Shown one piece after another: positions 13,645-41,429 of a stretch of DNA of 41,657 bases. This DNA is from an uncultured Synergistales bacterium. GTDB taxonomy: Bacteria > Synergistota > Synergistia > Synergistales > Aminobacteriaceae. A model generated the notes under the pieces. That model was not told the DNA's origin. It ran no database searches and was given only the letters and a program-made list of their open reading frames with translations. Made by a program: the position numbers and the translations under genes. The stretch covers positions 1 to 41,657 of the forward strand of contig CAJOEW010000012.1 in NCBI GenBank assembly GCA_905233525.1, given 5' to 3'. Position 1 is the stretch's first letter. Each line of letters opens with the position of its first letter.

Positions 13645-15920
13645 TTACGCCGGCAATTTTTTATCGAGTTCAATATTATTTTCAGGCTCGTTATTATTTT
13701 CCGGCTTATTGTCTTCTTTATCACCTTCGTTTTCAGGCTCATTAACTCTTTCAGCCATATGTATCACACGCTGCGGATAAGGTATCTCAATTCCTTCACG
13801 TTTGAACACTGCTGCAATATGGTGGCGCATATCACTTGATACTTTCATGCCGGTCGACTGCTTAAGATCTATCCAGTAATATACCTCAAATTCCAATGCG
13901 CTGTCGCCAAAATTTTTAAATATAATCACCGGTGCAGGATCTTTTAAAACTTTTGAATGTCCTTTAACGATATCGTTTAACAATTCCTCAACCTTGCGAG
14001 TATCAGAATCATAAGCAACGCCGATTTTTAAAAGCTCGCGTTTTTTCATATCTGAGCCTGTCCAATTTGTAACGCTGTTCTCTAAAAAATATCTGTTCGG
14101 CATGCGACAATTTGGACCGCCGTAAACAGACGTCTTGGTCGCCAATTTTTTCAACTTCTTCTGCTGAAAATCACGATAAAGCCGCTGATCAAATTATTAA
14201 AAATATTTTGCATTCCGAAACCTATACCAACAGCCATAGCTCCGCCCATGAATGCGAATGCCGTTAAAGGTATCTCGACGATATTAAGAGCTATTAAAGC
14301 AAAAGCCACCCATAAAATATAAAATACTATTCTTTGAATTGCATTAACGGCTGTGATATTTGCGTTAACTCGTTTTAAAAGCCTGCGTTTTAATAAATTG
14401 CTTCCAAACGAACTCAAAAAGAAGCTCGACAAAAATACAAGTATTGCTATTATCAATTTGCCGACTGTTACAGCATAGCCTTCGCCTTCCCATAATTGAG
14501 TGTTAAAAAATCCTATGATTGTTTCACGGCTGTAATTACTTACTTTTTCGGCAATACGTAAAGCGCTTATATTATCATTGGCTTCGGCGTTTAATCTTTG
14601 CTGCAAAAATATCATGTCAGGTATTAACGCTTCATAACGGTTCATTACGTCCGATATTATTTTTCGTTGATTATCAACAGCTTGAATCATGTTTTGCTGA
14701 ATTACGCCTGTTACTCCTTCTGAATTAGCCTGCTGTTGAAGTTCATCGACTTGTTTTAAAATATTTGCTTCAAGCGCTCTAATTCCTTCTAATTCGCGTT
14801 CAAGGCTATTTATATTTTTTTCGGTGTTATCGCGGATTGCCCATATTTCCTCGCCTGAAGCCTTATCATTAAATAATTTAAATCTGTCCTTCCAAATCTG
14901 GATCAGTTCACGGTTATAAGCTATTTCTTCTTCGATGAGCAATAATAAATATTCCCAATAGCTTACGCGTGCAGAACGAGCTAAGAAAATTGCGGCCTGG
15001 CTTGTAATCGGTTGAGCGTTAGGATCTTTTGAACCTAATTGAGCGCGTGCCTTTGATAATGCAGAATTAGCGCCTTCAAGAGATTTGCGAGCCGAGTTTA
15101 ATTCTTCTGTTAACTCTGTGATTCTTGCTTGGAGCTTATCAATTTTTGAGTCCAGCATTTCTTTACTGAACACTAAATTTCCTGACATATCAGCGAGTCT
15201 GCGTCTTAGGCGTTTTATATTATCGACGTTTTGATCAAAAATTTTTTTGATATCTCTAACCTGTAAACGTGTTAATGCGATATTCAGGCGTGCGTTTTCA
15301 AGCTCTAATATATGCGTGCGCGGAGTCTCTAAACCTGAACCGCCTGACTCAGCTTCTTTTAATTCTTTTTTCAATTTTGCAGCGTCATCTAAATTTGCAC
15401 GGAGCTTACTTAATTTTGACTGTAAATAAAGAACTTGAGTAACAATTCCGCGCGAGACTTTGCTAATTTCTTTTCTCAAATCATCTTGAGCGAATATATC
15501 AGACGATGTAACGATTTCGAGTTCTGAAACGTCATTTGATTTTGTTTCGAGTTCTGCTGCTTTGATTACTTGACGGCTGCCCTGAATTAAAGAGCTGTAA
15601 CTTGACCATGATAAGCCCAATTCTGAAAGGACTCTTAAATATGCTTCGCGTTGTTCGTCCGTATAATTCCATAGCGTCATATCATCCGAAGCTGTTTCAG
15701 ATAATTTAGTTAATTCAGCGATTCGAGCTTCAATATTTTCAGGATCCAGATTGATTTCCGCAAGCTCTTCATCGATTGATTTTCTTAGGCGTGCGATATC
15801 GTTGCTTATTTCATTTTGGACGGTGATTATATAATCTGTTCCGACATCTTTAACTTCAGCGGCTTGTGCTGAAAATACGAGTGTGAAAATAAAAAGCAGT
15901 GTAACGAAAAATTTTCGCAT
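13645..15920 (-). pseudogene. MscS-family mechanosensitive channel with long coiled-coil N-terminus, disrupted near the TM3/beta-domain junction
   Basis: ORF 14151-15920 ends GIGFGMQNIFNNLISGFIVIFSRRS*; ORF 13645-14154 resumes …MPNRYFLENSVTNWTGSD; the intervening GD-V-V core is missing and EVEKIG is in a third frame. Confidence 0.75.
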
Positions 15921-19424: not shown

Positions 19425-22370
19425 TTGAAGCGCATTATCAATTTATTTGTTTGTTTAATGATTCTTTCAAGTACTGCGGCTTATGGTGCTAAAGTTGAAG
19501 TTACGACGACGCGCCGATTATTGCCGACGATGGTTTATTTGATCGGTACATATGACTCTGAAGGGAATCCCGATGTATGTATAGTCGATCGAGGAGGAAT
19601 TCTTGAGACCTCAACACCGTTGAAATATTACATATCGTTAAAGGACTCCCGCCAAACGACCAAAAATATTTTAGCGAATAAGTCTTTTACGATTAACATT
19701 CCTAATTCAGGTATTCTCGCTCAAATGGATTATATGGGACAAGTTCATGCTGACAGCGGCGACGCGTATTTTAATAAGCTCGGTGTTACAGGTTTGAATT
19801 ATGCTAAAGCTGAAGGATCCGGCGATATAAGCGTTAATGCTCCGATTTTAACTGATTGCAATATCGTTTATGAATGCGTTTTAGCAACCGATGAGCCTTA
19901 TACATTTGATGACTCTGATTATAAAATGTACGCTGCAAATATTGTAAGGACTCATGTAAAACCGGCCATAATGACAGATTCTGAAGCTGTTCCCGGTGTT
20001 GGAAATGTCAGTATCAAGAGCGCGGATATAATTTTCTTTTCAGGTGCGGGCGGAGATCTTGCAGGTTATTATAAAGCTAATGCTACAGGTTTAGCGCGTT
20101 ACAGCACTTGGAAAGAAGAATACTCAGATGAAGACGTTGCAGGACTGTTAACAGCTCCAGGCTCAAGCGGAAGCAGAGGCAGAAGCAGCAGCGGCGAAAC
20201 ACCTTCACAAGAACTTTACGAAGGCTTTGCTACAGTTTTAGGCGGATTGCATTTTTTGCCGGCTCCTGTAATGGTTTTGGGAGCATATACAAACGCAGGT
20301 AAAGCTACTAAGACAAAACCGAATTTTGCAACGTATCACAGAGGCGGCTTACTTGTGACAGGCGACGCTACGTATATTGGAATCGGTATCAAAGGCTCGA
20401 CCAGCTGGACTCGTGAATGCGTCTTATCAAATGATGGTTACGCTTCTATTTCGATTCCGTCAGTGGAATATTTACCGGAAGCCGATTTAGTAGGAACTTA
20501 TTCAGGAAGACCGTTATCAGGCGATGGATCTTTTGTCGTATCAACTGATGAAGAAGGCTATCAGGATAAAACAGCGCCATGTGTTGCAAAAGGCCGTATA
20601 ACTCTTGATACAACTTATGAAGCGCCAATGATTAACCAATTTCCGATTAACTTTATATGCAAGCACGTTAAAGATATAGTCGTGGCAGATGACACAAGCG
20701 CAAAATTGATGGTGTTCAAAGTTTTAAAAACGTTCGTTGATGAAAATTACATATCTGAAAACGGCGATAACGCTAAAATAAATCCGATCGTAGGAACTGA
20801 CACTGACACGGCGTTAACATTTTTTGCTCATCCTACACACGGCTATTTCTCGTACGGTGATTTCTTAGGCAAATCCGGTTTAAGCACGTCAAAATATCAG
20901 ACAAGCTCAACAGCTACGAGTTTCATAATCAATGATGATAATAACAAGGCTGAATTGATTTTCTTGCTGACTCCTGAAGGCTCAAACGCTGATGTTGATC
21001 AGACAATGCAGGAAAATAAATTTATCGGCGCTGTTAATCATACAACGATTTCAAGCAATACAACCGAAAATTATACAGACGACGGAGTATCAGGCGCAGG
21101 CTTTAAACTTAATATTACGCTGGATGGTATTCCGTCCGGCTATTCTGGAATTATCGGTATAAATAAAGTCTGTTATCTCACTGAAGAAAATTTAGGCGAG
21201 TTGTTTCCATATACTTACGCTGCATTCAATAAAGCTGCAGATATCGAAGGAGCACCAGGCTGGAAAGAAACAACAAGCGCAGATTTTAAAGCGGCAGGGC
21301 TTTCTGTTTGGGCAATGTCGTCCGATTCAACGCCGGCTTACGAAATAACGCCATATATCTCTGCAGGTGTATATATATCAGACGACAGCACAATGATTTT
21401 ATCTTATGGAACAGTCTTAATCGACGGTGCAATTGATGAAAACGAAGGAAAAGTTTACGCAATTAACCCTGAAGAAGGCGGAGAAGGTACAATGCATGAC
21501 GGTTCAGCCGATGGAAAAATCGCTGCTACATGGTTTGTAAAGGCTGTAAAGTCGGAAGTTAAGGCAATTCCTGAGGAGGATAATAAAGCTGAATTATCTT
21601 TTGTGATTACGCCGGCTGAACTTGATGACACTACAGCAAAAGAAAGCCTTGAGACTCATAAAATAAAATTCGTTACAGAAGAAAATATAGGCTCAGGCGC
21701 AAAAAGTGAGATCCGCGAAATTACAAACGATGATCAAATTGAAAACGGCGGTTTTAAAATGTCGATACCAATAAATTCAAAAGACTTCGACGAAACTTAC
21801 AGACCTGCGCTCGGAATTCAAAAAATGTTTGTATTTACGGCTGATAATATCGGTTCTGAAAGATATAACGCTTTGAAAAATGCTATAGCCTCACTCGAAA
21901 AAAAGAGCAACGGATTTTTAGCTGAACGTCCGTCAACAACAGTTTTAACAAACAGCGGTATTCATATTTTTGCAAGTTATCCCGAGAATGCTACAAGCTC
22001 ATCAGCTAGAGTAGCAGGCGTAAGCGATACGGATATCAGCGATCAAATCGATTTTAATTTAATGCAAAGCGATGATAGCTCTATTGTTATGGGTTATGGC
22101 GCAATAATCGTAGACCGTGCTTTAACAGCGAATGAAGGCGGAGAATATGAAACCTCTCAAGAAACAACAAGAGTAACAAGCGACGGAGCTTCGGATTATG
22201 TTTTAACAGCTGAATGGTATATGACAGCATCAGATGTAATCTATGACGAAGATGAAGACACCACAGAAGCAGGACAAATCCAAGGCCCAGGCAGTTCTTC
22301 AGGAGGCTGTGCTGTGTATTCATGGCCGCTTATGATTTTTGCAGCACTCGCAATTAAAAAGAGACGTTAA
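19425..22370 (+). CDS. Secreted, C-terminally anchored protein: two flavin-reductase-like split-barrel domains + two copies of an unrecognised ~200-aa domain + Synergist-CTERM-like tail
   Basis: SD aaggagg 7 nt before TTG; signal peptide MKRIINLFVCLMILSSTAAYG; LLPTMVYLIGTYDSEGNPDVCIVDRGG and LPAPVMVLGAYTNAGKATKTKPNFATYHRGG; C-terminus SSGGCAVYSWPLMIFAALAIKKRR. Confidence 0.8.
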   Translation: MKRIINLFVCLMILSSTAAYGAKVEVTTTRRLLPTMVYLIGTYDSEGNPDVCIVDRGGILETSTPLKYYISLKDSRQTTKNILANKSFTINIPNSGILAQMDYMGQVHADSGDAYFNKLGVTGLNYAKAEGSGDISVNAPILTDCNIVYECVLATDEPYTFDDSDYKMYAANIVRTHVKPAIMTDSEAVPGVGNVSIKSADIIFFSGAGGDLAGYYKANATGLARYSTWKEEYSDEDVAGLLTAPGSSGSRGRSSSGETPSQELYEGFATVLGGLHFLPAPVMVLGAYTNAGKATKTKPNFATYHRGGLLVTGDATYIGIGIKGSTSWTRECVLSNDGYASISIPSVEYLPEADLVGTYSGRPLSGDGSFVVSTDEEGYQDKTAPCVAKGRITLDTTYEAPMINQFPINFICKHVKDIVVADDTSAKLMVFKVLKTFVDENYISENGDNAKINPIVGTDTDTALTFFAHPTHGYFSYGDFLGKSGLSTSKYQTSSTATSFIINDDNNKAELIFLLTPEGSNADVDQTMQENKFIGAVNHTTISSNTTENYTDDGVSGAGFKLNITLDGIPSGYSGIIGINKVCYLTEENLGELFPYTYAAFNKAADIEGAPGWKETTSADFKAAGLSVWAMSSDSTPAYEITPYISAGVYISDDSTMILSYGTVLIDGAIDENEGKVYAINPEEGGEGTMHDGSADGKIAATWFVKAVKSEVKAIPEEDNKAELSFVITPAELDDTTAKESLETHKIKFVTEENIGSGAKSEIREITNDDQIENGGFKMSIPINSKDFDETYRPALGIQKMFVFTADNIGSERYNALKNAIASLEKKSNGFLAERPSTTVLTNSGIHIFASYPENATSSSARVAGVSDTDISDQIDFNLMQSDDSSIVMGYGAIIVDRALTANEGGEYETSQETTRVTSDGASDYVLTAEWYMTASDVIYDEDEDTTEAGQIQGPGSSSGGCAVYSWPLMIFAALAIKKRR

Positions 22371-22478: not shown

Positions 22479-24215
22479 TTAACGGATTTTATATAATTCA
22501 GCGTATAAACCTCCGGCGGATAATAATTCCTCGTGCGTGCCTTCCTGGATAATTCGTCCGCTGTCAATAACTAGAATGCGATCGGCTTCCTTTATGGTTG
22601 ATAATCTGTGAGCAATTATAAAAGATGTACGGCCTGCCATTGCTTGATTGATTGCTTTTTGAACTTGACGCTCTACAGCCGCATCGAGTGAGCTTGTTGC
22701 TTCGTCCAGTATTAAAATTTTAGGATCTCTAATGATCGCGCGCGCTATTGCAATTCTTTGACGCTGTCCTCCTGATAATGTCACGCCGCGCTCGCCGATC
22801 TCTGTGTTATATTTTTCAGGCAGGCTCTCAATAAATTCCCGTATGTCAGCCGTTTCCGCCGCTTGAATAATTTTTGACATACCGCAATCGTCAAGACCAT
22901 ATGAAATATTAAATGATATGCTGCCCTTCATTAAAATACATTCCTGCGGAACAATACCTATTTGACGGCGTAAAGACTTTAAATCAAATTCGCGAACGTC
23001 ATGGCCGTCAATTAACACGCGTCCGGAATTTGGAGTATAAAAGCCCGGAATGAGATCCGCTATTGTTGATTTCCCTGAGCCTGTCGGACCGACTAACGCA
23101 ATTTTTTCACCGGTTGAAACATTTATATTTATTCCGTGTAAAATTTCTTGGCCTGATTCGTATTCAAATCTGACGTTATCAAATTTTACATTACCTGCAA
23201 TTTTAAATGCCGTTCTGATTTTTGCGTGTTCGTCTGTTTCGATCGGCATGTCTAAAATTTCAAATATACGATCGGCTGCTGCTAAACCTGTCTGCAAATT
23301 GCTCATTTGATTCATTACAGTTCTTATAGGCTGAACCATAAAGGCTATATAACCAATAAATGACACAAGCTCGCCGGGCGTTAATGTTCCGTCAATGACA
23401 TTTGAACCTCCAAGCCAAAATACTACCGCTAACGCACATATTAAAAATACTTCGATCACACCGGCGAAAATTCCCTGGATTGATACAGAATGCAACAGCG
23501 CTCCGTAATTTTTATCGTTGGCGATTCTGAAACGCTCTAATTCTAAATCTTCAGTGGCAAATGATCTCACAACTCTTATCGCTGAAAAAGCTTCTTGTGC
23601 TGTCGCTGTGATGTCCGCTAAATTTTCCTGAACACGATGGCCGGCTTTACGTAACTTGTCAGAAGCTACAGATAACATTAACGCAACAACAGGTAATATT
23701 AAAATTATCAGGCTCGTTAATTTCCAGTTGATATAAAAAATAAATGCGAACATCCCTAAAAACGTAAGAAAGTTAAAAGCAAGATCAACAAGCGCACTTG
23801 AAACTAACGTCTGTAAAATTGAAACGTCATTTGTAATTCTGCTCATCAATTCACCGATTCTGGAAGCGTAAATTTTTTTGAGCGAGATCCTTTGCATGTG
23901 ATCATATAATTCTATTCGGATATCTTTAACAACACTTTGACCGGCTTCGTTCATCAAATATTTCTGCCAGTAAGTTGTTACAGCTTTGAGACCAAATATA
24001 ATTATTATTGACGCGCATATGATATTTAACATAAAAGTATTTTTTGAGATCAATACATCATCAACAACGCTTTTAAATAACCACGGCGGCAATACGTTCA
24101 AACCTGATGACAACAGCATAAAAATTACAGCGCCGAATAATTTTCCTTTATGTCTTGCCGTGTATTTGAATAATCTTTTAACGGGTGAATTATTATTTTT
24201 TTTCTTCATGTTCAA
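22479..24215 (-). CDS. MsbA-like ABC exporter (TM + NBD fusion)
   Basis: Walker A GPTGSGKST, signature LSGGQRQRIAIARAI, Walker B ILILDEATSSLD; six-TM N-terminus. Confidence 0.95.
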   Translation of the reverse strand: MNMKKKNNNSPVKRLFKYTARHKGKLFGAVIFMLLSSGLNVLPPWLFKSVVDDVLISKNTFMLNIICASIIIIFGLKAVTTYWQKYLMNEAGQSVVKDIRIELYDHMQRISLKKIYASRIGELMSRITNDVSILQTLVSSALVDLAFNFLTFLGMFAFIFYINWKLTSLIILILPVVALMLSVASDKLRKAGHRVQENLADITATAQEAFSAIRVVRSFATEDLELERFRIANDKNYGALLHSVSIQGIFAGVIEVFLICALAVVFWLGGSNVIDGTLTPGELVSFIGYIAFMVQPIRTVMNQMSNLQTGLAAADRIFEILDMPIETDEHAKIRTAFKIAGNVKFDNVRFEYESGQEILHGININVSTGEKIALVGPTGSGKSTIADLIPGFYTPNSGRVLIDGHDVREFDLKSLRRQIGIVPQECILMKGSISFNISYGLDDCGMSKIIQAAETADIREFIESLPEKYNTEIGERGVTLSGGQRQRIAIARAIIRDPKILILDEATSSLDAAVERQVQKAINQAMAGRTSFIIAHRLSTIKEADRILVIDSGRIIQEGTHEELLSAGGLYAELYKIR

Positions 24216-24228
24216 ATTTTTGTAAATA

Positions 24229-25326
24229 TTATTTAGCTGAGATGATATCGCACAATTTTGAAGCGGCTCCTTTTTTCCCTGACAGGCTTAATAATTCCGC
24301 GCGAGTCTTCTCAAGTTGTTCAGGATTCCTTAAATCTTCATACATAGCTTCAGCAGCATCCTCAGGCGTAATATCTCCGTACATCTCATTTAAAACTTTA
24401 TGGCGTGAAATTCTATTAGGTAACGACATAACGCCTCCCCATCGTTTTAACTTCTTCATGAGTGCAAATTTTTTTATTCTGCTTCCTATAAACGGCAAAT
24501 TCGATAAAAAATGAGCAACGCCTCCGACCGGAATAAGACTTATAAATTTTTCAGGCGCAACAACAAGACCAGGTAATCCGCAGTGCATAAGCTCAAAATT
24601 ATTTGTACCTGGCTGTGTTAAAGCGTAATCAGCATTCAACATCGCAGCACCGGCTCCGCATTTAATAGGATTCAATCCGGCTTTATCCCATTCCTGAAAT
24701 TCGCTGGCCGGCATAAATTGAGAGAATAATGTTCTGATTCTGACCGACGGCATTTTTTCAAGAATACATTTACGAACTTCTGACAGCCATTCTAAAGCGG
24801 CCGAACGTATTAAAGGTCTTGTACCCGGAAAAAATAACACCCTCGGCGAATCTTCAAGTTTAGGCCAATTCCATGATTGAAGCTGAACAGGAGTTTGATC
24901 AAGTTCTAAAGCGTCCTTAACAAGATCTCCGATCGCTTCTGCATTTGGAATCTTGCGAGCCTGTTTTGTAAAAGCTGTTAAAATTTTTGCGCCGGCCGGA
25001 AATTTTCTAGCTCCATATGTATAACAGGTTAAAGGCGCGTGCGCTGATTTTGATAATCTAGCTCCGAATAACATATCTCCGCCGAGCTGTATTACATGAT
25101 CAGTTTTCTCGCTTGCCATGTCGTGCCATATCCTAGCAGCGTTTGAAGGTCCTTCGAGTTTATCAACGCCCAATAACGACGCGGCCTCACGTTCATAACC
25201 TGATGAAAATTGACACGGCAGCAGCCACAACGAAACAATATGGCCTCTCTTGCGAAGCTCCATAACTACAGGGCGCGCCCATCCCCATAATTCGCCGGGA
25301 CCGTTCGTTAAAATGCTGACGCGCAA
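24229..25326 (-). CDS. Lipid-A-disaccharide synthase-related glycosyltransferase (LpxB-like)
   Basis: MRVSILTNGPGELWGWARPVVMELRKRGH…GGDMLFGARL…ALTQPGTNNFELMHCGLPGLVVAP. Confidence 0.75.
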   Translation of the reverse strand: MRVSILTNGPGELWGWARPVVMELRKRGHIVSLWLLPCQFSSGYEREAASLLGVDKLEGPSNAARIWHDMASEKTDHVIQLGGDMLFGARLSKSAHAPLTCYTYGARKFPAGAKILTAFTKQARKIPNAEAIGDLVKDALELDQTPVQLQSWNWPKLEDSPRVLFFPGTRPLIRSAALEWLSEVRKCILEKMPSVRIRTLFSQFMPASEFQEWDKAGLNPIKCGAGAAMLNADYALTQPGTNNFELMHCGLPGLVVAPEKFISLIPVGGVAHFLSNLPFIGSRIKKFALMKKLKRWGGVMSLPNRISRHKVLNEMYGDITPEDAAEAMYEDLRNPEQLEKTRAELLSLSGKKGAASKLCDIISAK

Positions 25327-25331
25327 AATTA

Positions 25332-26246
25332 TTACGCCTCCTTCTCTCCGTTCAACATGTCTATATTAACTTTCATAACGTGTAACATTCTGGACATATT
25401 CTTCATAATTTCGATCGAGTTTGAAGCGTTGAGTGTGATAAATTTTTCAAATTCGCTCCTTCCGATTCTAAGCACTAACAAATCACTGAAAGCTACCACT
25501 GTATAAATTTCCGGTTCGTCCGTTAACAATGAATATTCGCCGAATGTATTACCGTCTTTGAGATTGCCGATCACAAGCTCTTCATCAGTGCCGTAATTAA
25601 AATAACAAACAGCATTACCTGAAACGATTTTATACATGTCCTTGTTAACTTCGCCTTGACGTAAAACGACTTCATCTGCTGAAAATTTCAACATCTTTGG
25701 CTTCTCGACGTTCATTGTAAAATTATTAACGTCGTCTTCTTTTATCTGATCAAGAAATAACGAAGCATATACAAGCCGTGAATCACAATTATCGCCGATT
25801 ATAAATGACCTGCAAAAATTTACATCAGAGCTTGATAAAATCAACATGATATTACTTTCGCGGCCTTCCTTTTCTGCGAATGACTTTAAAGAACTCGTAA
25901 AAGCTAAATTGCGATCGCTCAAATTCGTAAAATTATCAAGTACTACGATTATGCGTTTGCCGTTTGATTTTTCAGATACGTACGATAATGCAGTCTTCCA
26001 AAATTGAAACGGCGTTTTATCTTCGTCGTTATAATGCTTACGCACCATTATGGAGAAGTTCAGCAAATTTTTTAAGCCGCTTTCATACGAGGCCATAAAG
26101 AAAATATTTTCCCTGCGTTTGCAAAATTCTTCGACTAGTGCAGTTTTTCCTACACCTCTAGCACCGCTGACTATTACAACCTGAAAGCCGCTTTGATTAT
26201 AAATTCTTTCGAGCGTTTCTAATTCTTTGTCGCGTCCTACAAACAT
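25332..26246 (-). CDS. P-loop ATPase + cyclic-nucleotide-binding-like domain protein, paralogue 1
   Basis: MFVGRDKELETLERIY…GARGVGKTALVEEFC; C-term LRQGEVNKDMYKIVSGNAVCYFNYGTDEELVIGNLKDGNTFGEYSLL; ATG at 26246 matches the N-termini of the paralogues. Confidence 0.85.
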   Translation of the reverse strand: MFVGRDKELETLERIYNQSGFQVVIVSGARGVGKTALVEEFCKRRENIFFMASYESGLKNLLNFSIMVRKHYNDEDKTPFQFWKTALSYVSEKSNGKRIIVVLDNFTNLSDRNLAFTSSLKSFAEKEGRESNIMLILSSSDVNFCRSFIIGDNCDSRLVYASLFLDQIKEDDVNNFTMNVEKPKMLKFSADEVVLRQGEVNKDMYKIVSGNAVCYFNYGTDEELVIGNLKDGNTFGEYSLLTDEPEIYTVVAFSDLLVLRIGRSEFEKFITLNASNSIEIMKNMSRMLHVMKVNIDMLNGEKEA

Positions 26247-26360
26247 GATATTAAATAAAAGTCCTCCGTGCGTGAAAAATTTTTTTATATCCGGCGTAAT
26301 AATAACAAATTTTAAAAACACGGACGCATAAAAAAATTAACGCTCAAAAATTATGCAGGC

Positions 26361-27308
26361 TCAATCAATTTTTTCAGGCAAATTTTCCGACGCTGATATA
26401 TCTTCGTATAAAATTTCCGTGTTGATTTTCATAACGTTTAGCATTTTTGCCATATGGCTCATAATATCTTTAAAGTTCGATGAATCCATTGATACAAATT
26501 TTTCAATCTCGCTCCAGCTCACACGAAGTAATAATAATTCACTCTCAGCAACTACCGTATAAATTCCAGGTTTGCCCGTCAATAATGAATACTCGCCGAA
26601 CATATTGCCCTCTTTGAGTCCTCCGACTACCAGTTCTCTGTCAGTGCCGTAATTAAAATAATAAACAGCATGGCCTGAAATAATTTTATAAATATCTTTG
26701 TTAATTTCGCCTTCACGTAAAACGATCTCATCTTCGGAAAATCTGATTATATTCGCTTTATCAACGTTCATTAACAATTTTTGTATGTCTTCGTCTGAAA
26801 CTTTATCAATAAAAATTGCTGCGTATATTCTTTTTGCGATGATGTCATTACTATTGATCAGGCTGTTATATAAATGCTCGTCATTTGTCGAAATAATTAA
26901 CATCATATTATTCATTATCAATTCTTGTTCCGGGATCTCCTGCAAATATTTTATTATTAACAGGCTTTTTTCCGTCGCGTTCGATAAATTGTCGATTACC
27001 AAAATTATGCGCTTGTCCTTATTTTTTTCGTATAAATAAGAAAATGCAATCTTCCAAAACGGGAATGTAAACTGGCTCGTGTCTTCGTCATTGAAATATT
27101 CTCGAATCATACGCGATAAGTTAGGCAGATTTGTTCGAGCTTCGTATTCTGAAGCCGTGAAAAAAATATTACGCTTATGTTTGCAGAATTCTTCAAGTAA
27201 CGTGGTTTTGCCAACGCCTTTTTTACCGCCTAACAATACAATGTGAAGGCCGTCTTGTTTATAAATTCTTTCAAGCTTTTCAATTTCTTTATCACGCCCG
27301 ACAAACAT
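26361..27308 (-). CDS. P-loop ATPase + cyclic-nucleotide-binding-like domain protein, paralogue 2
   Basis: GGKKGVGKTTLLEEFC; LREGEINKDIYKIISGHAVYYFNYGTDRELVVGGLKEGNMFGEYSLLTGKPGIYTVVA. Confidence 0.88.
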   Translation of the reverse strand: MFVGRDKEIEKLERIYKQDGLHIVLLGGKKGVGKTTLLEEFCKHKRNIFFTASEYEARTNLPNLSRMIREYFNDEDTSQFTFPFWKIAFSYLYEKNKDKRIILVIDNLSNATEKSLLIIKYLQEIPEQELIMNNMMLIISTNDEHLYNSLINSNDIIAKRIYAAIFIDKVSDEDIQKLLMNVDKANIIRFSEDEIVLREGEINKDIYKIISGHAVYYFNYGTDRELVVGGLKEGNMFGEYSLLTGKPGIYTVVAESELLLLRVSWSEIEKFVSMDSSNFKDIMSHMAKMLNVMKINTEILYEDISASENLPEKID

Positions 27309-27387
27309 GATTAAAAAAATTCCTCCTGTTAATAAAATTTTTTAAGTTCCGGCGTTAATAATAACAAACTTTCAAACGTGAACGCAT

Positions 27388-27424
27388 AAAAAAAAATCCC
27401 TGCCTGATATTTCACAGACAGGGC
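27388..27424 (-). terminator. Terminator after paralogue 3
   Basis: Minus strand CCCTGtCTG…CAGgCAGGGATTTTTTTTT. Confidence 0.7.
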
Positions 27425-27446
27425 GGTAATAAAATTTAAGGATTGA

Positions 27447-28373
27447 TTATTTCGTACTTGTTTGATCTCCGCTTAACATATCCATGCCGACTTTCATAAC
27501 GTTTAAGATTTTGGCCATGTTATGCATTATTTCAGTAAAGTTCGAGGCGTTGATCGTGATGAATCTTTCAAGTTCGGTGCGGCTGATTCTTAACACAAGC
27601 AATTCACTGAAAGCAACTACCGTATAAATTCCAGGTTTGCCCGTTAATAATGAATACTCGCCGAATGTATTGCCGTCTCTTAATCCTCCGATGACTAATT
27701 CTTTATCAGTGCCGTAATTAAAATAGTAAACAGCATGGCCTGAAATAATTTTATACATGTCGTTATTTATTTCGCCTTCACGTAAAACGATCTCATCTTC
27801 AGAAAATCTTAACATCTTCGCTTTATCAGTGTTCATTAAAAGTTTCTGAACGTCCTCTTCAGGAACGGTATTTATAAAAATCGAAGCATATATACGCCGC
27901 GATAAAGCATCGTCGCCTATGAGAATATTATTATAAAAATTTATATCATTCGTCGATAATATCAGCATTATATTATTATTTAATAATTCCTGTTCGACGG
28001 CGTGCTGTAAATATTTTATGATCGTGAAAACTTTTTCATTTCTGCTTGATAAATTATCCAGTACTATTATTACGCGCTTACCTTTTGATTTTTGTGATAT
28101 ATATTCGAGAGCTGATTTCCAGAAAGGAAAACTGAAGGGCGTTCTATCAATGTCATTGAAGTGCGAGCGGATCATAATTGAGAAGTTTGATAAATTCATG
28201 CGTCCGTTTCGTTCTGAGCCAATAAAAAAAATACTGTCTTTGCGTTTACAAAATTCTTCAAGTAACGTAGTTTTGCCCACACCTTTTTTACCGCCAATTA
28301 GAACGACATGAAATCCGCTTTGTTTATGAATCCTGTCGAGATATTCCAGTTCTTTCTCTCGTCCGATGAACAT
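27447..28373 (-). CDS. P-loop ATPase + cyclic-nucleotide-binding-like domain protein, paralogue 3
   Basis: MFIGREKELEYLDRIHKQSGFHVVLIGGKKGVGKTTLLEEFC; NNDMYKIISGHAVYYFNYGTDKELVIGGLRDGNTFGEYSLL. Confidence 0.88.
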   Translation of the reverse strand: MFIGREKELEYLDRIHKQSGFHVVLIGGKKGVGKTTLLEEFCKRKDSIFFIGSERNGRMNLSNFSIMIRSHFNDIDRTPFSFPFWKSALEYISQKSKGKRVIIVLDNLSSRNEKVFTIIKYLQHAVEQELLNNNIMLILSTNDINFYNNILIGDDALSRRIYASIFINTVPEEDVQKLLMNTDKAKMLRFSEDEIVLREGEINNDMYKIISGHAVYYFNYGTDKELVIGGLRDGNTFGEYSLLTGKPGIYTVVAFSELLVLRISRTELERFITINASNFTEIMHNMAKILNVMKVGMDMLSGDQTSTK

Positions 28374-28520
28374 GTTATATCAAAGTCCTCCTTATCCAGA
28401 AAAAATTTTCTTTAAATTCTGCGTCATGATAACAAAAATTTCAAGACACATGACACTAAAAATTTTTTGAAGTCTATTGTAAAATTTCCGGCCAAAAATC
28501 ATAAGGAGGTATAAAAAATA

Positions 28521-37790: not shown

Positions 37791-40700
37791 ATGCGTTTGC
37801 TCTGGTCGCTGGCCAAATTTATTTTATTTTTGGGTGTTATTACATTTGCTGCCGGTGCTGCGTTGTTTTGGTTACCTACAGGTTCGCAAGTTGTAAAGCC
37901 TTTATCAGAATGGGCGGTTAATTATTTTTTCAATCCTCTTGATCTTAAAATTGCTGATATGAACGGATCAATACATGACGGCTATAAAATTCAGGGATTG
38001 CGTTTACTTTCAGCTGACGAAGAATTATTAAAGCTCGATCATTTTTTAATCAGTCCTGACTGGGATATGGTGCTTAATGGTCTTGACGGAATACCTTTTA
38101 TAAAAATTATTGAGGCCGGCGGAATCAGCAGCGACCTTGATAAAGTTACACGCCTTGCAAATTTATTCACGCCTGAAAGTTCTGATAAAGCTTCAAATAA
38201 AAATAAAGACGATTCGCAGGCATTAACGTCCATAAAAATAAATCCGTTCACGATTTCCATTGATAATATATTTTTCTCAACGCCGCAAATCAATACGGAT
38301 ATACAAAAATTATTTTTAGACGAGGACGGAAATTTAATTTTAAAATCGCGGATAATATCAAAAGATAATATACTGCCTTTGAATATAAATGCGCTTCTGG
38401 ATTTTGAAACGCTCGAAATAAAATCAAGCGATCTTCAAATCGGTAAAGGCTCAGGAATTTTAAAAGCTAAGATTATGCCTTCGCCGGATATAAAATTATT
38501 TTTAACGGCTTTGCAGATTGATGAGTTCATGAAATTTTCACCGGAGAAATTAAACGCTTCAGGACGGCTTGACGCGAAATTATTCTATAACGATTCCGGC
38601 GCTTCAGGTGTTTTATCAATGCCTCGCGGAAATATTATGGACGTGCCTTTAAAATTCAGACTGCCTTTTAATTGGAACGGTGCTGATACGTTTAAAATTA
38701 CTGATGCCGATTTAAAGACTAATGCTGCGTCGTTACATCTTGACTCAAGCGCAAATATAAACACCATGAAAATTACAGCTAACGGTGAAGCTAAAAATAT
38801 TTCTCTGCGTGAGATCGGTAAAATTTTTGCGCCGGATATAAAACTTGAAGGTGAAGGCGGATATTTAAAATTTGACCTTGATATGATTGCGAGCGGTGAT
38901 ATTTTGAATAACATTACGTGCGATTTAAATTCAAGGATACCATTTATAAGCGTCATGAACATGAAAGTCTTAAATAATTTCACAGCTAAGGCCGTTTTAA
39001 AACCGAATGAGACTCCTAAAATTGCTCTTAACGGCGAAATTTTTAAGGGTAAATTATTCGCTCGCGGTGAAGCTGCAATGAACGATAAAGGCGAATTTAA
39101 ACCGCAGGCAGTTTTTTCAGTTGTTAATCTTGATTTGCCGACGCTCGTTAATACAATTCCGGACTTAAAAAAATCTGTCAAAAAGCCGTCAGGGAAATTA
39201 ACATTGCGCGCTGTCGTGGCTGAAAATCTTGATATTGACGCAAAATTAAATTCAGACAAGCTTTCAATGAACGGCGTTACGATTACAAATACAAAGGCTG
39301 ATTTAAGATACAGTGTTCAAAAAAATGAGGCCGCGCTAGAAAATTTCATTACGAATTTAGGCAAAGGCATTATAAAAGCTTCAGGATATGCAGATGTGAA
39401 TAAAAGTACTTTTAAATTTTTCGCTAATGTCAATAATCTTGAGTTAAAGGCGATTCCTGATTTAAAAGAAATTTCAGGAGTGTATAACGTTGACGCTCAA
39501 GCCTCCGGAAATTATGCGAACTTGAAAACTATAACGGCCTCTGCAAATTTAAGAGCGCGTAATATTGGTTATGGCGGTATGTCATTTGGAGATGTTGATG
39601 TGCCTGTAAATTTCGCGTCGAATAAATTAAATATACCCAGCGCTCGTGCAAAATTACCAGGCGGCGATGTCACATTCGGAGGAAATATAGATATCAATAA
39701 TGCGAATAATCCTAACATCGCTATTGCATTATCAAGTAAAGGAGTAGACCTCGCTAAAGTTTTTAAAGCCTTCAATCTCGAAAATAAAGACATGCCGATC
39801 AAGGGAAATGTCCGCGGTGTTGTGAATGTGTTAGGCCGTCTTGACAGTGCGAAAGTTTTTGCGGACCTTACAGCGAATAATATTAAAGCCGGTGAATTTG
39901 TTGATATGCCTACCGGAAAAATTAACATCGAAGGAAATATGAAGGAAATATTTTTAAAGAAGCTCGAAGCTAAAATTAACAAGGCCGATTTAAAAGCTTC
40001 AGGCAATTTAAAATTAAACCAGTCTGATATTATGCAAAGTACGTTTCTTGTAAACGCGAATGTAAAAAATTTCCTGCTTGATCCTGTTTTAAAGAAAGCC
40101 ATCGGCAGCACACCTGTTACAGGAATGTTAAGTGCGCGAGTTGTAGCTGATGGAAGTTTTGAGCAGCCGAAATTAAAATTAAATTTAACGAATCCGATTA
40201 CAGCGGGCGGAATCAAAATTGAAGACATCGAAGTGAGATTAGCCACGCCTGAAAAGAATTATTACAAAATTAACGCAGGCGCAAAAACGGGAACATTCAG
40301 AATTAACACGGATATTGACTTGAAAAATAAAAATAATGTCTGGTTTTATAACGTAGCTACGAAACCGATGAACTTAGGAAATTTAACAGACAGTTTTGCA
40401 CCGGACGCAAAAGGCATGGTATCAGGCCAAGCTGTTTTAAAAGTCGACGGCAGCACAAACATGAAAGATCCTATTAATATAAATTTGTCATCGAATAAGA
40501 TAAGCCTGCTTGAAAAAATTAACATCGAGAAATTAAACGTGCCTGTACAATATTTTCTTGATAAGAATCAAGTCAGCATGAAAGACGCTCGAGCTGTTAT
40601 CAGTGAAGGACAAATTAGATCCGGCTTTGAACTGAACGTGAACACATCTGAATGGAAGAGTAATTTACGCGTTCGAGGTCTTAATTTTGGAAAATTGGCA

Positions 40701-41429
40701 CAACCGTTTTTACCAGAAGGCGAATTGATCGGAAGCGCTGATCTTGATGTGCACGCAAAAGGGAATTACAGCAAGGTATGGCCTAACAGTTACGCAAACG
40801 GAAAATTTAGAACGAGCTCCGGATATTTTCACAAAATGAAATTACTTGACGACATAACACCGACGAAGCAAATAAGCTTTGAAAATATTAAGGGCTCATT
40901 TTTCTGGAACGGCAGCGATTTATTTTTCAATCCAGGCACACAGGCGACAGCAGCATATAGTGAGCCGTTATATCGTTACATATCTATGAGCGGTTCGTGC
41001 GGATTAGCTGGTAAGAATTTAAACCTTGTATTTGAAGGAAGATTTGATCTTAAAATTTTGGATCGTTTCTTAGGCGCTATGAAAGGCATATTTCAATACA
41101 TGGCCGGCAATCTTGCAAGGAATGTATTACGTGACGCAGCCGGCAGGGTGTTAGGAATGAAAACGCGTGATTTTCAGAATGTATCATTCAGGCTTGCGAA
41201 CAACTGGCAGGAATTGCACATGCTTGATCTCACGATAACGAAGCCTATTGAAGATTTTTTACCTGTTGATATTTTGAACAGAGATCAAGAAGTTCAAAAG
41301 GACGATAAACAATTTAAGCTCTCTATTAAAATTCCGACAGGTCCAGGCGATAAGAGCATTGAAGAAGAATCAACGACCGATCAATTTAAAGAACAGCTGA
41401 TCGATAATTTATTCAATATTGGACTATAA
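37791..41429 (+). CDS. TamB/AsmA-like translocation and assembly module protein (DUF490)
   Basis: N-terminal TM anchor, long beta-repeat body, C-terminal DUF490-like end (GRVLGMKTRDFQNVSFRLANNW). Confidence 0.8.
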   Translation: MRLLWSLAKFILFLGVITFAAGAALFWLPTGSQVVKPLSEWAVNYFFNPLDLKIADMNGSIHDGYKIQGLRLLSADEELLKLDHFLISPDWDMVLNGLDGIPFIKIIEAGGISSDLDKVTRLANLFTPESSDKASNKNKDDSQALTSIKINPFTISIDNIFFSTPQINTDIQKLFLDEDGNLILKSRIISKDNILPLNINALLDFETLEIKSSDLQIGKGSGILKAKIMPSPDIKLFLTALQIDEFMKFSPEKLNASGRLDAKLFYNDSGASGVLSMPRGNIMDVPLKFRLPFNWNGADTFKITDADLKTNAASLHLDSSANINTMKITANGEAKNISLREIGKIFAPDIKLEGEGGYLKFDLDMIASGDILNNITCDLNSRIPFISVMNMKVLNNFTAKAVLKPNETPKIALNGEIFKGKLFARGEAAMNDKGEFKPQAVFSVVNLDLPTLVNTIPDLKKSVKKPSGKLTLRAVVAENLDIDAKLNSDKLSMNGVTITNTKADLRYSVQKNEAALENFITNLGKGIIKASGYADVNKSTFKFFANVNNLELKAIPDLKEISGVYNVDAQASGNYANLKTITASANLRARNIGYGGMSFGDVDVPVNFASNKLNIPSARAKLPGGDVTFGGNIDINNANNPNIAIALSSKGVDLAKVFKAFNLENKDMPIKGNVRGVVNVLGRLDSAKVFADLTANNIKAGEFVDMPTGKINIEGNMKEIFLKKLEAKINKADLKASGNLKLNQSDIMQSTFLVNANVKNFLLDPVLKKAIGSTPVTGMLSARVVADGSFEQPKLKLNLTNPITAGGIKIEDIEVRLATPEKNYYKINAGAKTGTFRINTDIDLKNKNNVWFYNVATKPMNLGNLTDSFAPDAKGMVSGQAVLKVDGSTNMKDPININLSSNKISLLEKINIEKLNVPVQYFLDKNQVSMKDARAVISEGQIRSGFELNVNTSEWKSNLRVRGLNFGKLAQPFLPEGELIGSADLDVHAKGNYSKVWPNSYANGKFRTSSGYFHKMKLLDDITPTKQISFENIKGSFFWNGSDLFFNPGTQATAAYSEPLYRYISMSGSCGLAGKNLNLVFEGRFDLKILDRFLGAMKGIFQYMAGNLARNVLRDAAGRVLGMKTRDFQNVSFRLANNWQELHMLDLTITKPIEDFLPVDILNRDQEVQKDDKQFKLSIKIPTGPGDKSIEEESTTDQFKEQLIDNLFNIGL

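What the first reader, a model, noticed from the sequence alone, without database searches (positions are those of the whole stretch)
25332..28373. Three tandem paralogues fusing a P-loop ATPase to a C-terminal cyclic-nucleotide-binding-like domain
Each ~305-315-aa protein starts MF(V/I)GR(D/E)KE…, has a G(A/G)(R/K)(K/R)GVGKT(T/A)L(L/V)EEFC Walker A, and ends with a CNB fold (LR(E/Q)GE(I/V)N(K/N)D(M/I)YKI(I/V)SG…FGEYSLLT). I see no HTH, enzymatic effector or TM segment. This order (ATPase then CNB, with no DNA-binding domain) is unlike CRP/FNR regulators, and the local triplication suggests diversification for different signals. This is the strongest candidate here for an undescribed signalling module.
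Basis: partly seen in the sequence, partly recalled or inferred. Interest (0 to 1): 0.7.

Follow-up and report, generated by a model that had tools for sequence, protein, structure and literature searches.

The report
ATPase–CNB proteins of partner-switching operons
Three neighbouring genes encode a protein built from an ATP-binding half and a cyclic-nucleotide-binding-type half; relatives elsewhere in the same genus of gut bacteria usually sit directly behind the kinase gene of a phosphatase–kinase signalling switch, where a sigma factor sits in well-known systems, so they are probably an unusual part of that switch.

Summary
Three minus-strand genes (28373-27447, 27308-26361, 26246-25332; 51-64% identical) each join a PF01637 ATPase to a C-terminal PF00027 domain plus a helix, with no HTH. 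The fusion was found only in one Synergistaceae genus: 24 of 43 genomes there, none of the other 145 in the phylum. Other best hits are ATPase–DUF234-type proteins matching only the ATPase. In 20 of 33 testable copies the gene starts within −10 to +16 bp of an RsbW-type kinase (HATPase_c_2), in an operon with SpoIIE phosphatases and usually a STAS protein. The window's copies are displaced duplicates; the same genome carries one such operon elsewhere (L133) and only RpoD- and FliA-like sigma factors. The cNMP-contacting arginine is missing in all 34 sequences, though the glutamate is kept. The P-loop is lost in 5 of 34 while the CNB half stays conserved, so 'cNMP-gated ATPase' is doubtful. Against that, class III cyclases occur in 8 genomes, all fusion-positive. 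Best reading: an RsbW-linked component of a partner switch. Function is inferred; AlphaFold2 did not fold the CNB half.

The parts
27447..28373 (-). P1, ATPase_2–CNB fusion, 308 aa
   Evidence: ORF; Pfam PF01637 + PF00027 over cut-off
26361..27308 (-). P2, ATPase_2–CNB fusion, 315 aa
25332..26246 (-). P3, ATPase_2–CNB fusion, 304 aa (ATG at 26246)
28266..28292 (-). Walker A of P1 (GGKKGVGKT region, residues 28-36)
   Evidence: sequence; intact in 29 of 34 aligned family rows
27609..27668 (-). phosphate-binding-cassette region of P1 (FGEYSLLTGKPGIYTVVA, residues 236-255): Glu kept, cNMP-contacting Arg replaced
28421..28436 (-). leader element TTTGTTATCATGACGC upstream of P1
   Evidence: one of only two exact genome-wide matches to TTTGTTATNATNACGC; alignment
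26294..26309 (-). same leader element upstream of P3 (TTTGTTATTATTACGC); P2 has it with one extra base
27398..27423 (-). terminator-like hairpin + T tract between P1 and P2
   Evidence: 9-pair stem, 6 G-C; consensus match only

Best explanation
The three genes are displaced, tandemly duplicated members of a genus-specific protein family that belongs to SpoIIE-phosphatase / RsbW-kinase / STAS partner-switching systems. Proposed mechanism: an extracellular signal reaches a dCache-HAMP-PP2C phosphatase; the phosphatase dephosphorylates the STAS protein; the STAS protein draws the HATPase_c_2 kinase away; and the ATPase-CNB protein, which lies where a sigma factor lies in spoIIA and rsb operons, is then released (or engaged) as the kinase's client. 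The conserved CNB + C-terminal helix is most likely the binding/dimerising part and does not need a classical cNMP. The P-loop half is a faster-evolving, partly dispensable nucleotide-dependent switch. Shown: architecture, family limits, operon context, residue losses. Inferred: kinase-fusion binding, direction of control, downstream output. In this genome the three copies would act in trans with the operon on contig C8.
For: Gene order STAS - LPG_synthase_C - EamA - membrane protein - dCache/HAMP/SpoIIE - (HAMP/SpoIIE) - HATPase_c_2 - fusion. The fusion is the next same-strand gene after the HATPase_c_2 domain, stand-alone or fused to the phosphatase, at -10 to +16 bp in 20 of 33 testable copies, at more than one genomic location. 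It holds also for variants with an N-terminal coiled coil or a lost P-loop. The window's genome has one such operon (L133 = C8:673-7124), only RpoD-like and FliA-like sigma factors and no CNB protein other than these three. CNB mean pairwise identity is 0.60 against 0.38 for the ATPase.
Against: No interaction or phosphorylation data. In 13 of 33 copies, the window's included, the fusion is not beside the kinase. Nearly every genome of the genus has SpoIIE phosphatases, many without a fusion, so the switch does not need it, and where it is absent the operon often ends in solute-binding-protein genes. Partner switches without sigma-B-type factors can act on a housekeeping sigma (Chlamydia sigma-66, reviewed in PMC8256260), so RpoD or FliA may be the kinase's target instead. 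Copies are phylogenetically related, so 20 of 33 is not 20 independent events.
Confidence: 0.42

Rival explanations
1. A cNMP-gated ATPase: the CNB half binds cAMP or cGMP through an unusual cassette and switches the P-loop half.
For: Glu of FGE kept in all rows and the best PDB matches include cAMP-binding PKA and CAP. PAS–class III cyclases occur in 8 of 37 genomes of the genus, all 8 fusion-positive (20 of 37 are; one-sided Fisher p 0.003, not corrected for kinship), and in 5 of those 8 (G003, G005, G010, G011, G022) fusions are the only CNB proteins found. Popeye domains bind cAMP with an atypical cassette (PMC6726836).
Against: Phosphate-binding Arg replaced (G, E, S, N, A or V) in 34 of 34 rows, mostly with I and Y at the next positions. 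12 fusion-positive genomes, the window's included, show no PF00211 cyclase, although other cyclase classes were not searched. P-loop lost in 5 rows.
Confidence: 0.22
2. An upstream regulator of the switch: the fusion acts on the phosphatase or kinase (as RsbT does on RsbU) and is not its client.
For: Same adjacency data; terminal operon position does not fix direction; the position is sometimes taken by solute-binding-protein genes that look like inputs.
Against: No RsbT-like domain; the tight coupling is to the kinase end and not to the sensor end.
Confidence: 0.22
3. An unrelated hitch-hiker: the gene was captured behind the operon and does something else, for instance work like that of the parent ATPase–DUF234 family (it matches the PADLOC candidate PDC-S27 over the ATPase only).
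For: 13 of 33 copies lie elsewhere; the ATPase half is clearly derived from PF01637; PDC-S27 match E 1e-13 to 9e-18.
Against: Repeated coupling in divergent subfamilies at different loci; the part shared with PDC-S27 is the part that decays.
Confidence: 0.14

Closest known systems
ATPase_2–DUF234 proteins (PF01637 + PF03008; about 470 aa, e.g. L041)
   Same: N-terminal MF(V/I)GR…GxxGxGKT ATPase, about 30-40% identical over residues 1-151
   Different: the C-terminal DUF234 part is replaced by a CNB domain + helix
spoIIAA-AB-AC and rsbV-W-sigB partner-switching operons
   Same: STAS antagonist, HATPase_c_2 kinase, SpoIIE/RsbU phosphatase; a gene immediately after the kinase
   Different: that gene encodes an ATPase–CNB protein, not a sigma factor
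CRP/FNR regulators
   Same: CNB-type domain followed by a helix
   Different: no HTH; an ATPase precedes the CNB
PKA regulatory subunits / CAP (cAMP-binding CNBs)
   Same: among the best solved-structure matches
   Different: cassette arginine absent

Membership tests
CRP/FNR family | CNB domain followed by HTH | tested here: not met
   Pfam finds no HTH; protein ends about 30 residues after the CNB
Classical cNMP-binding CNB | PF00027 match | tested here: met
   over cut-off in all three
Classical cNMP-binding CNB | cassette Glu | tested here: met
   34 of 34 rows
Classical cNMP-binding CNB | cassette Arg contacting the cyclic phosphate | tested here: not met
   0 of 34 rows (PDB alignments)
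ATPase_2–DUF234 | PF01637 ATPase with Walker A | tested here: met
   Walker A intact in the window's three copies
ATPase_2–DUF234 | C-terminal DUF234 (PF03008) | tested here: not met
   present in the homologue L041
STAND NTPases | NTPase with C-terminal repeat sensor | tested here: not met
   no repeats found; nSTAND matches below cut-off
SpoIIE/RsbW/STAS partner-switching module | phosphatase and HATPase_c_2 kinase genes (with STAS) in the same operon as the fusion | tested here: met
   met for relatives; the window's own copies are not in it, but the genome has the operon (L133)
SpoIIE/RsbW/STAS partner-switching module | fusion binds the kinase as its client | not testable with these tools
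   needs an interaction assay
PADLOC PDC-S27 defence candidate | full-length match | tested here: not met
   at most profile positions 4-185 of 474 matched

The most novel reading that the evidence does not exclude
A partner-switching system in which the anti-sigma-type kinase sequesters an ATPase-CNB protein instead of a sigma factor, using a CNB fold turned into a ligand-independent docking/dimerising part, with a class III cyclase feeding the same network in some species.
Probability: 0.25. Interest if true: 0.75.

Novelty: new variant of a known kind. Interest (0 to 1): 0.5.

Why it matters
Partner switches are usually read as sigma-factor control. A genus in which a non-sigma, ATP-binding CNB-type protein repeatedly takes the slot behind the kinase, in a genome with only RpoD- and FliA-like sigma factors, gives a direct and cheap test of what else these kinases control. 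It also offers a natural series in which a CNB domain stays conserved after losing the cNMP-binding arginine, and even when its attached P-loop decays.

Tried and rejected
AlphaFold2 on the whole protein and on the CNB piece: CNB half not folded, so no fold search of that half was possible; the Foldseek run on the full model only recovers AAA+/ORC/STAND ATPases. Flagellar link: in G006 flgB-flgC-like genes lie just upstream and a FlgJ-like gene abuts the G011 copy, but most copies have no flagellar neighbour, so dropped. Defence: only the ATPase matches PDC-S27; dropped. Leader element as a regulon motif: exact matches only at the window genes, best explained by duplication; a first pattern with too many N was wrong. 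Literature: searches for the fusion or for CNB + SpoIIE found nothing describing it. Not searched: genomes of other phyla with the CNB half.

Full report
Observation. Three same-strand genes occupy 25332-28373: P1 (28373-27447), P2 (27308-26361) and P3 (26246-25332). Each has PF01637 from residue 2 and PF00027 at residues 187-273, both over Pfam's cut-offs, and no HTH. No NCBIfam model reaches its cut-off. They are 51-64% identical and under purifying selection (dN/dS about 0.17-0.24). Between copies the CNB halves have lower dS (0.64-0.92) than the ATPase halves (1.6 to saturated), which may point to gene conversion (inference). A terminator-like hairpin lies between P1 and P2. P1 and P3 share a leader element that has no other exact match in the genome, and P2 has it with one inserted base.

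Family limits. In the phylum scan (188 genomes, 63 genera) the full fusion occurs in 24 of 43 genomes of the window's genus and nowhere else; the other hits cover only the ATPase, in open frames of 445-654 aa. In 84,980 species genomes, the 7 best loci are fusions, all from MAGs titled Synergistaceae/Synergistales/Fretibacterium; the rest of the 80 loci kept (231 relatives in all) match the ATPase of mostly 460-490-aa proteins, one of which was confirmed as ATPase_2–DUF234. That scan started from peptide patterns in the ATPase half, so a fusion with a different ATPase would be missed.

Sequence anatomy. In 34 aligned rows (33 distinct; L034 and L182 are one MAG) the CNB half is the conserved part: mean pairwise identity 0.60, against 0.38 for the ATPase. 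Walker A is intact in 29 rows and lost in 5 (one of them N-terminally divergent/truncated); the Walker B Asp is often replaced. A subgroup carries an N-terminal coiled-coil-like extension in place of MFxGR. In the phosphate-binding cassette (PKA PRAATV) all rows read PGIYTV or a variant: Glu kept, Arg never present. The CRP-like CNB proteins of the genus that I aligned are also non-classical (e.g. FAETYALL…MVDVRA), so no classical cNMP-binding CNB was seen in the genus.

Context. Neighbourhoods of relatives show one operon: STAS, LPG_synthase_C-like, EamA, a membrane protein without Pfam match, dCache–HAMP–SpoIIE, HAMP–SpoIIE, HATPase_c_2 (alone or fused to the phosphatase), then the fusion. 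In 20 of 33 testable copies the fusion begins −10 to +16 bp from the kinase-bearing gene. One common location is beside secF-secD-yajC-ridA-enolase-like genes. The tree places G000 and G036 copies together (100/99), in a weakly supported group of orphan copies, and both genomes have them beside the same lpxB-like/msbA-like pair: one relocation and local duplication is the simplest reading (inference). In that tree call the labels of the three G000 rows and the two G036 rows collided, so each genome is represented by one row. G000's own operon is on C8 and ends in a solute-binding-protein gene at the contig edge. G000 has two sigma-70-type proteins, RpoD-like and FliA-like by sequence, the latter beside cheC/cheD-like genes (naming from sequence by eye), and no CNB besides P1-P3.

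Cyclic nucleotides. PF00211 cyclases (PAS + class III, with the metal Asp, Lys and Asn-Arg motifs visible by eye) occur in 8 of 37 genomes of the genus, all fusion-positive. A MATE–HATPase_c_2 fusion and an APH-family kinase lie next to the cyclase in L200, with relatives of the MATE gene at three other cyclase loci. This keeps a cNMP role open despite the lost Arg; kinship was not corrected for.

Mechanism. The operon position equals that of sigF after spoIIAB and sigB after rsbW (established knowledge; the switch itself is reviewed in PMC8256260). I therefore favour the fusion as a kinase-linked component, most likely its client, at 0.42. Direction of control, output and the role of ATP are inference. 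Chlamydia shows that such kinases can also act on a housekeeping sigma factor (PMC8256260), which is the main caution.

Noticed in passing
L137:9206-11877, L145:4590-7271, L147:4877-7556, L133:2-631: In many genomes of the genus the SpoIIE/RsbW operon ends in one or several tandem SBP_bac_3-like solute-binding-protein genes instead of the fusion, perhaps periplasmic inputs for the dCache sensor.
   Followed up: partly
L197-L204 (e.g. L200:2613-7186): PAS–class III cyclase in 8 genomes, in L200 behind a MATE transporter fused to a HATPase_c_2 domain, an APH-family kinase and a TIM-barrel-like gene; all 8 genomes carry the ATPase–CNB fusion.
   Followed up: partly
L140:8608-9804, L135:6347-7177, G000:C46:7772-8044: STAS domain fused to an APH-type phosphotransferase domain (both found by Pfam in L140, behind the RsbW gene; L135 and the 408-aa C46 frame look similar).
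   Followed up: partly
L122:8995-10074: The G026 C55 copy has an in-frame TAG between the ATPase part and the CNB part: a probable pseudogene.
   Followed up: partly
G005:C3:49857-50009: A duplicated tail fragment of the CNB/helix part lies just downstream of the G005 fusion.
   Followed up: no
window 24229-25326 and 22479-24215: A weakly LpxB-like protein followed by an MsbA-like ABC exporter, in the same order beside the fusions in G036; no Pfam hit over cut-off for the first gene.
   Followed up: partly
window 19458-22370: 970-aa protein whose only Pfam match is an N-terminal flavin-reductase domain.
   Followed up: no
window 37791-41429 and 14151-15920: 1212-aa and 589-aa proteins with no Pfam match at E 1e-5.
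   Followed up: no
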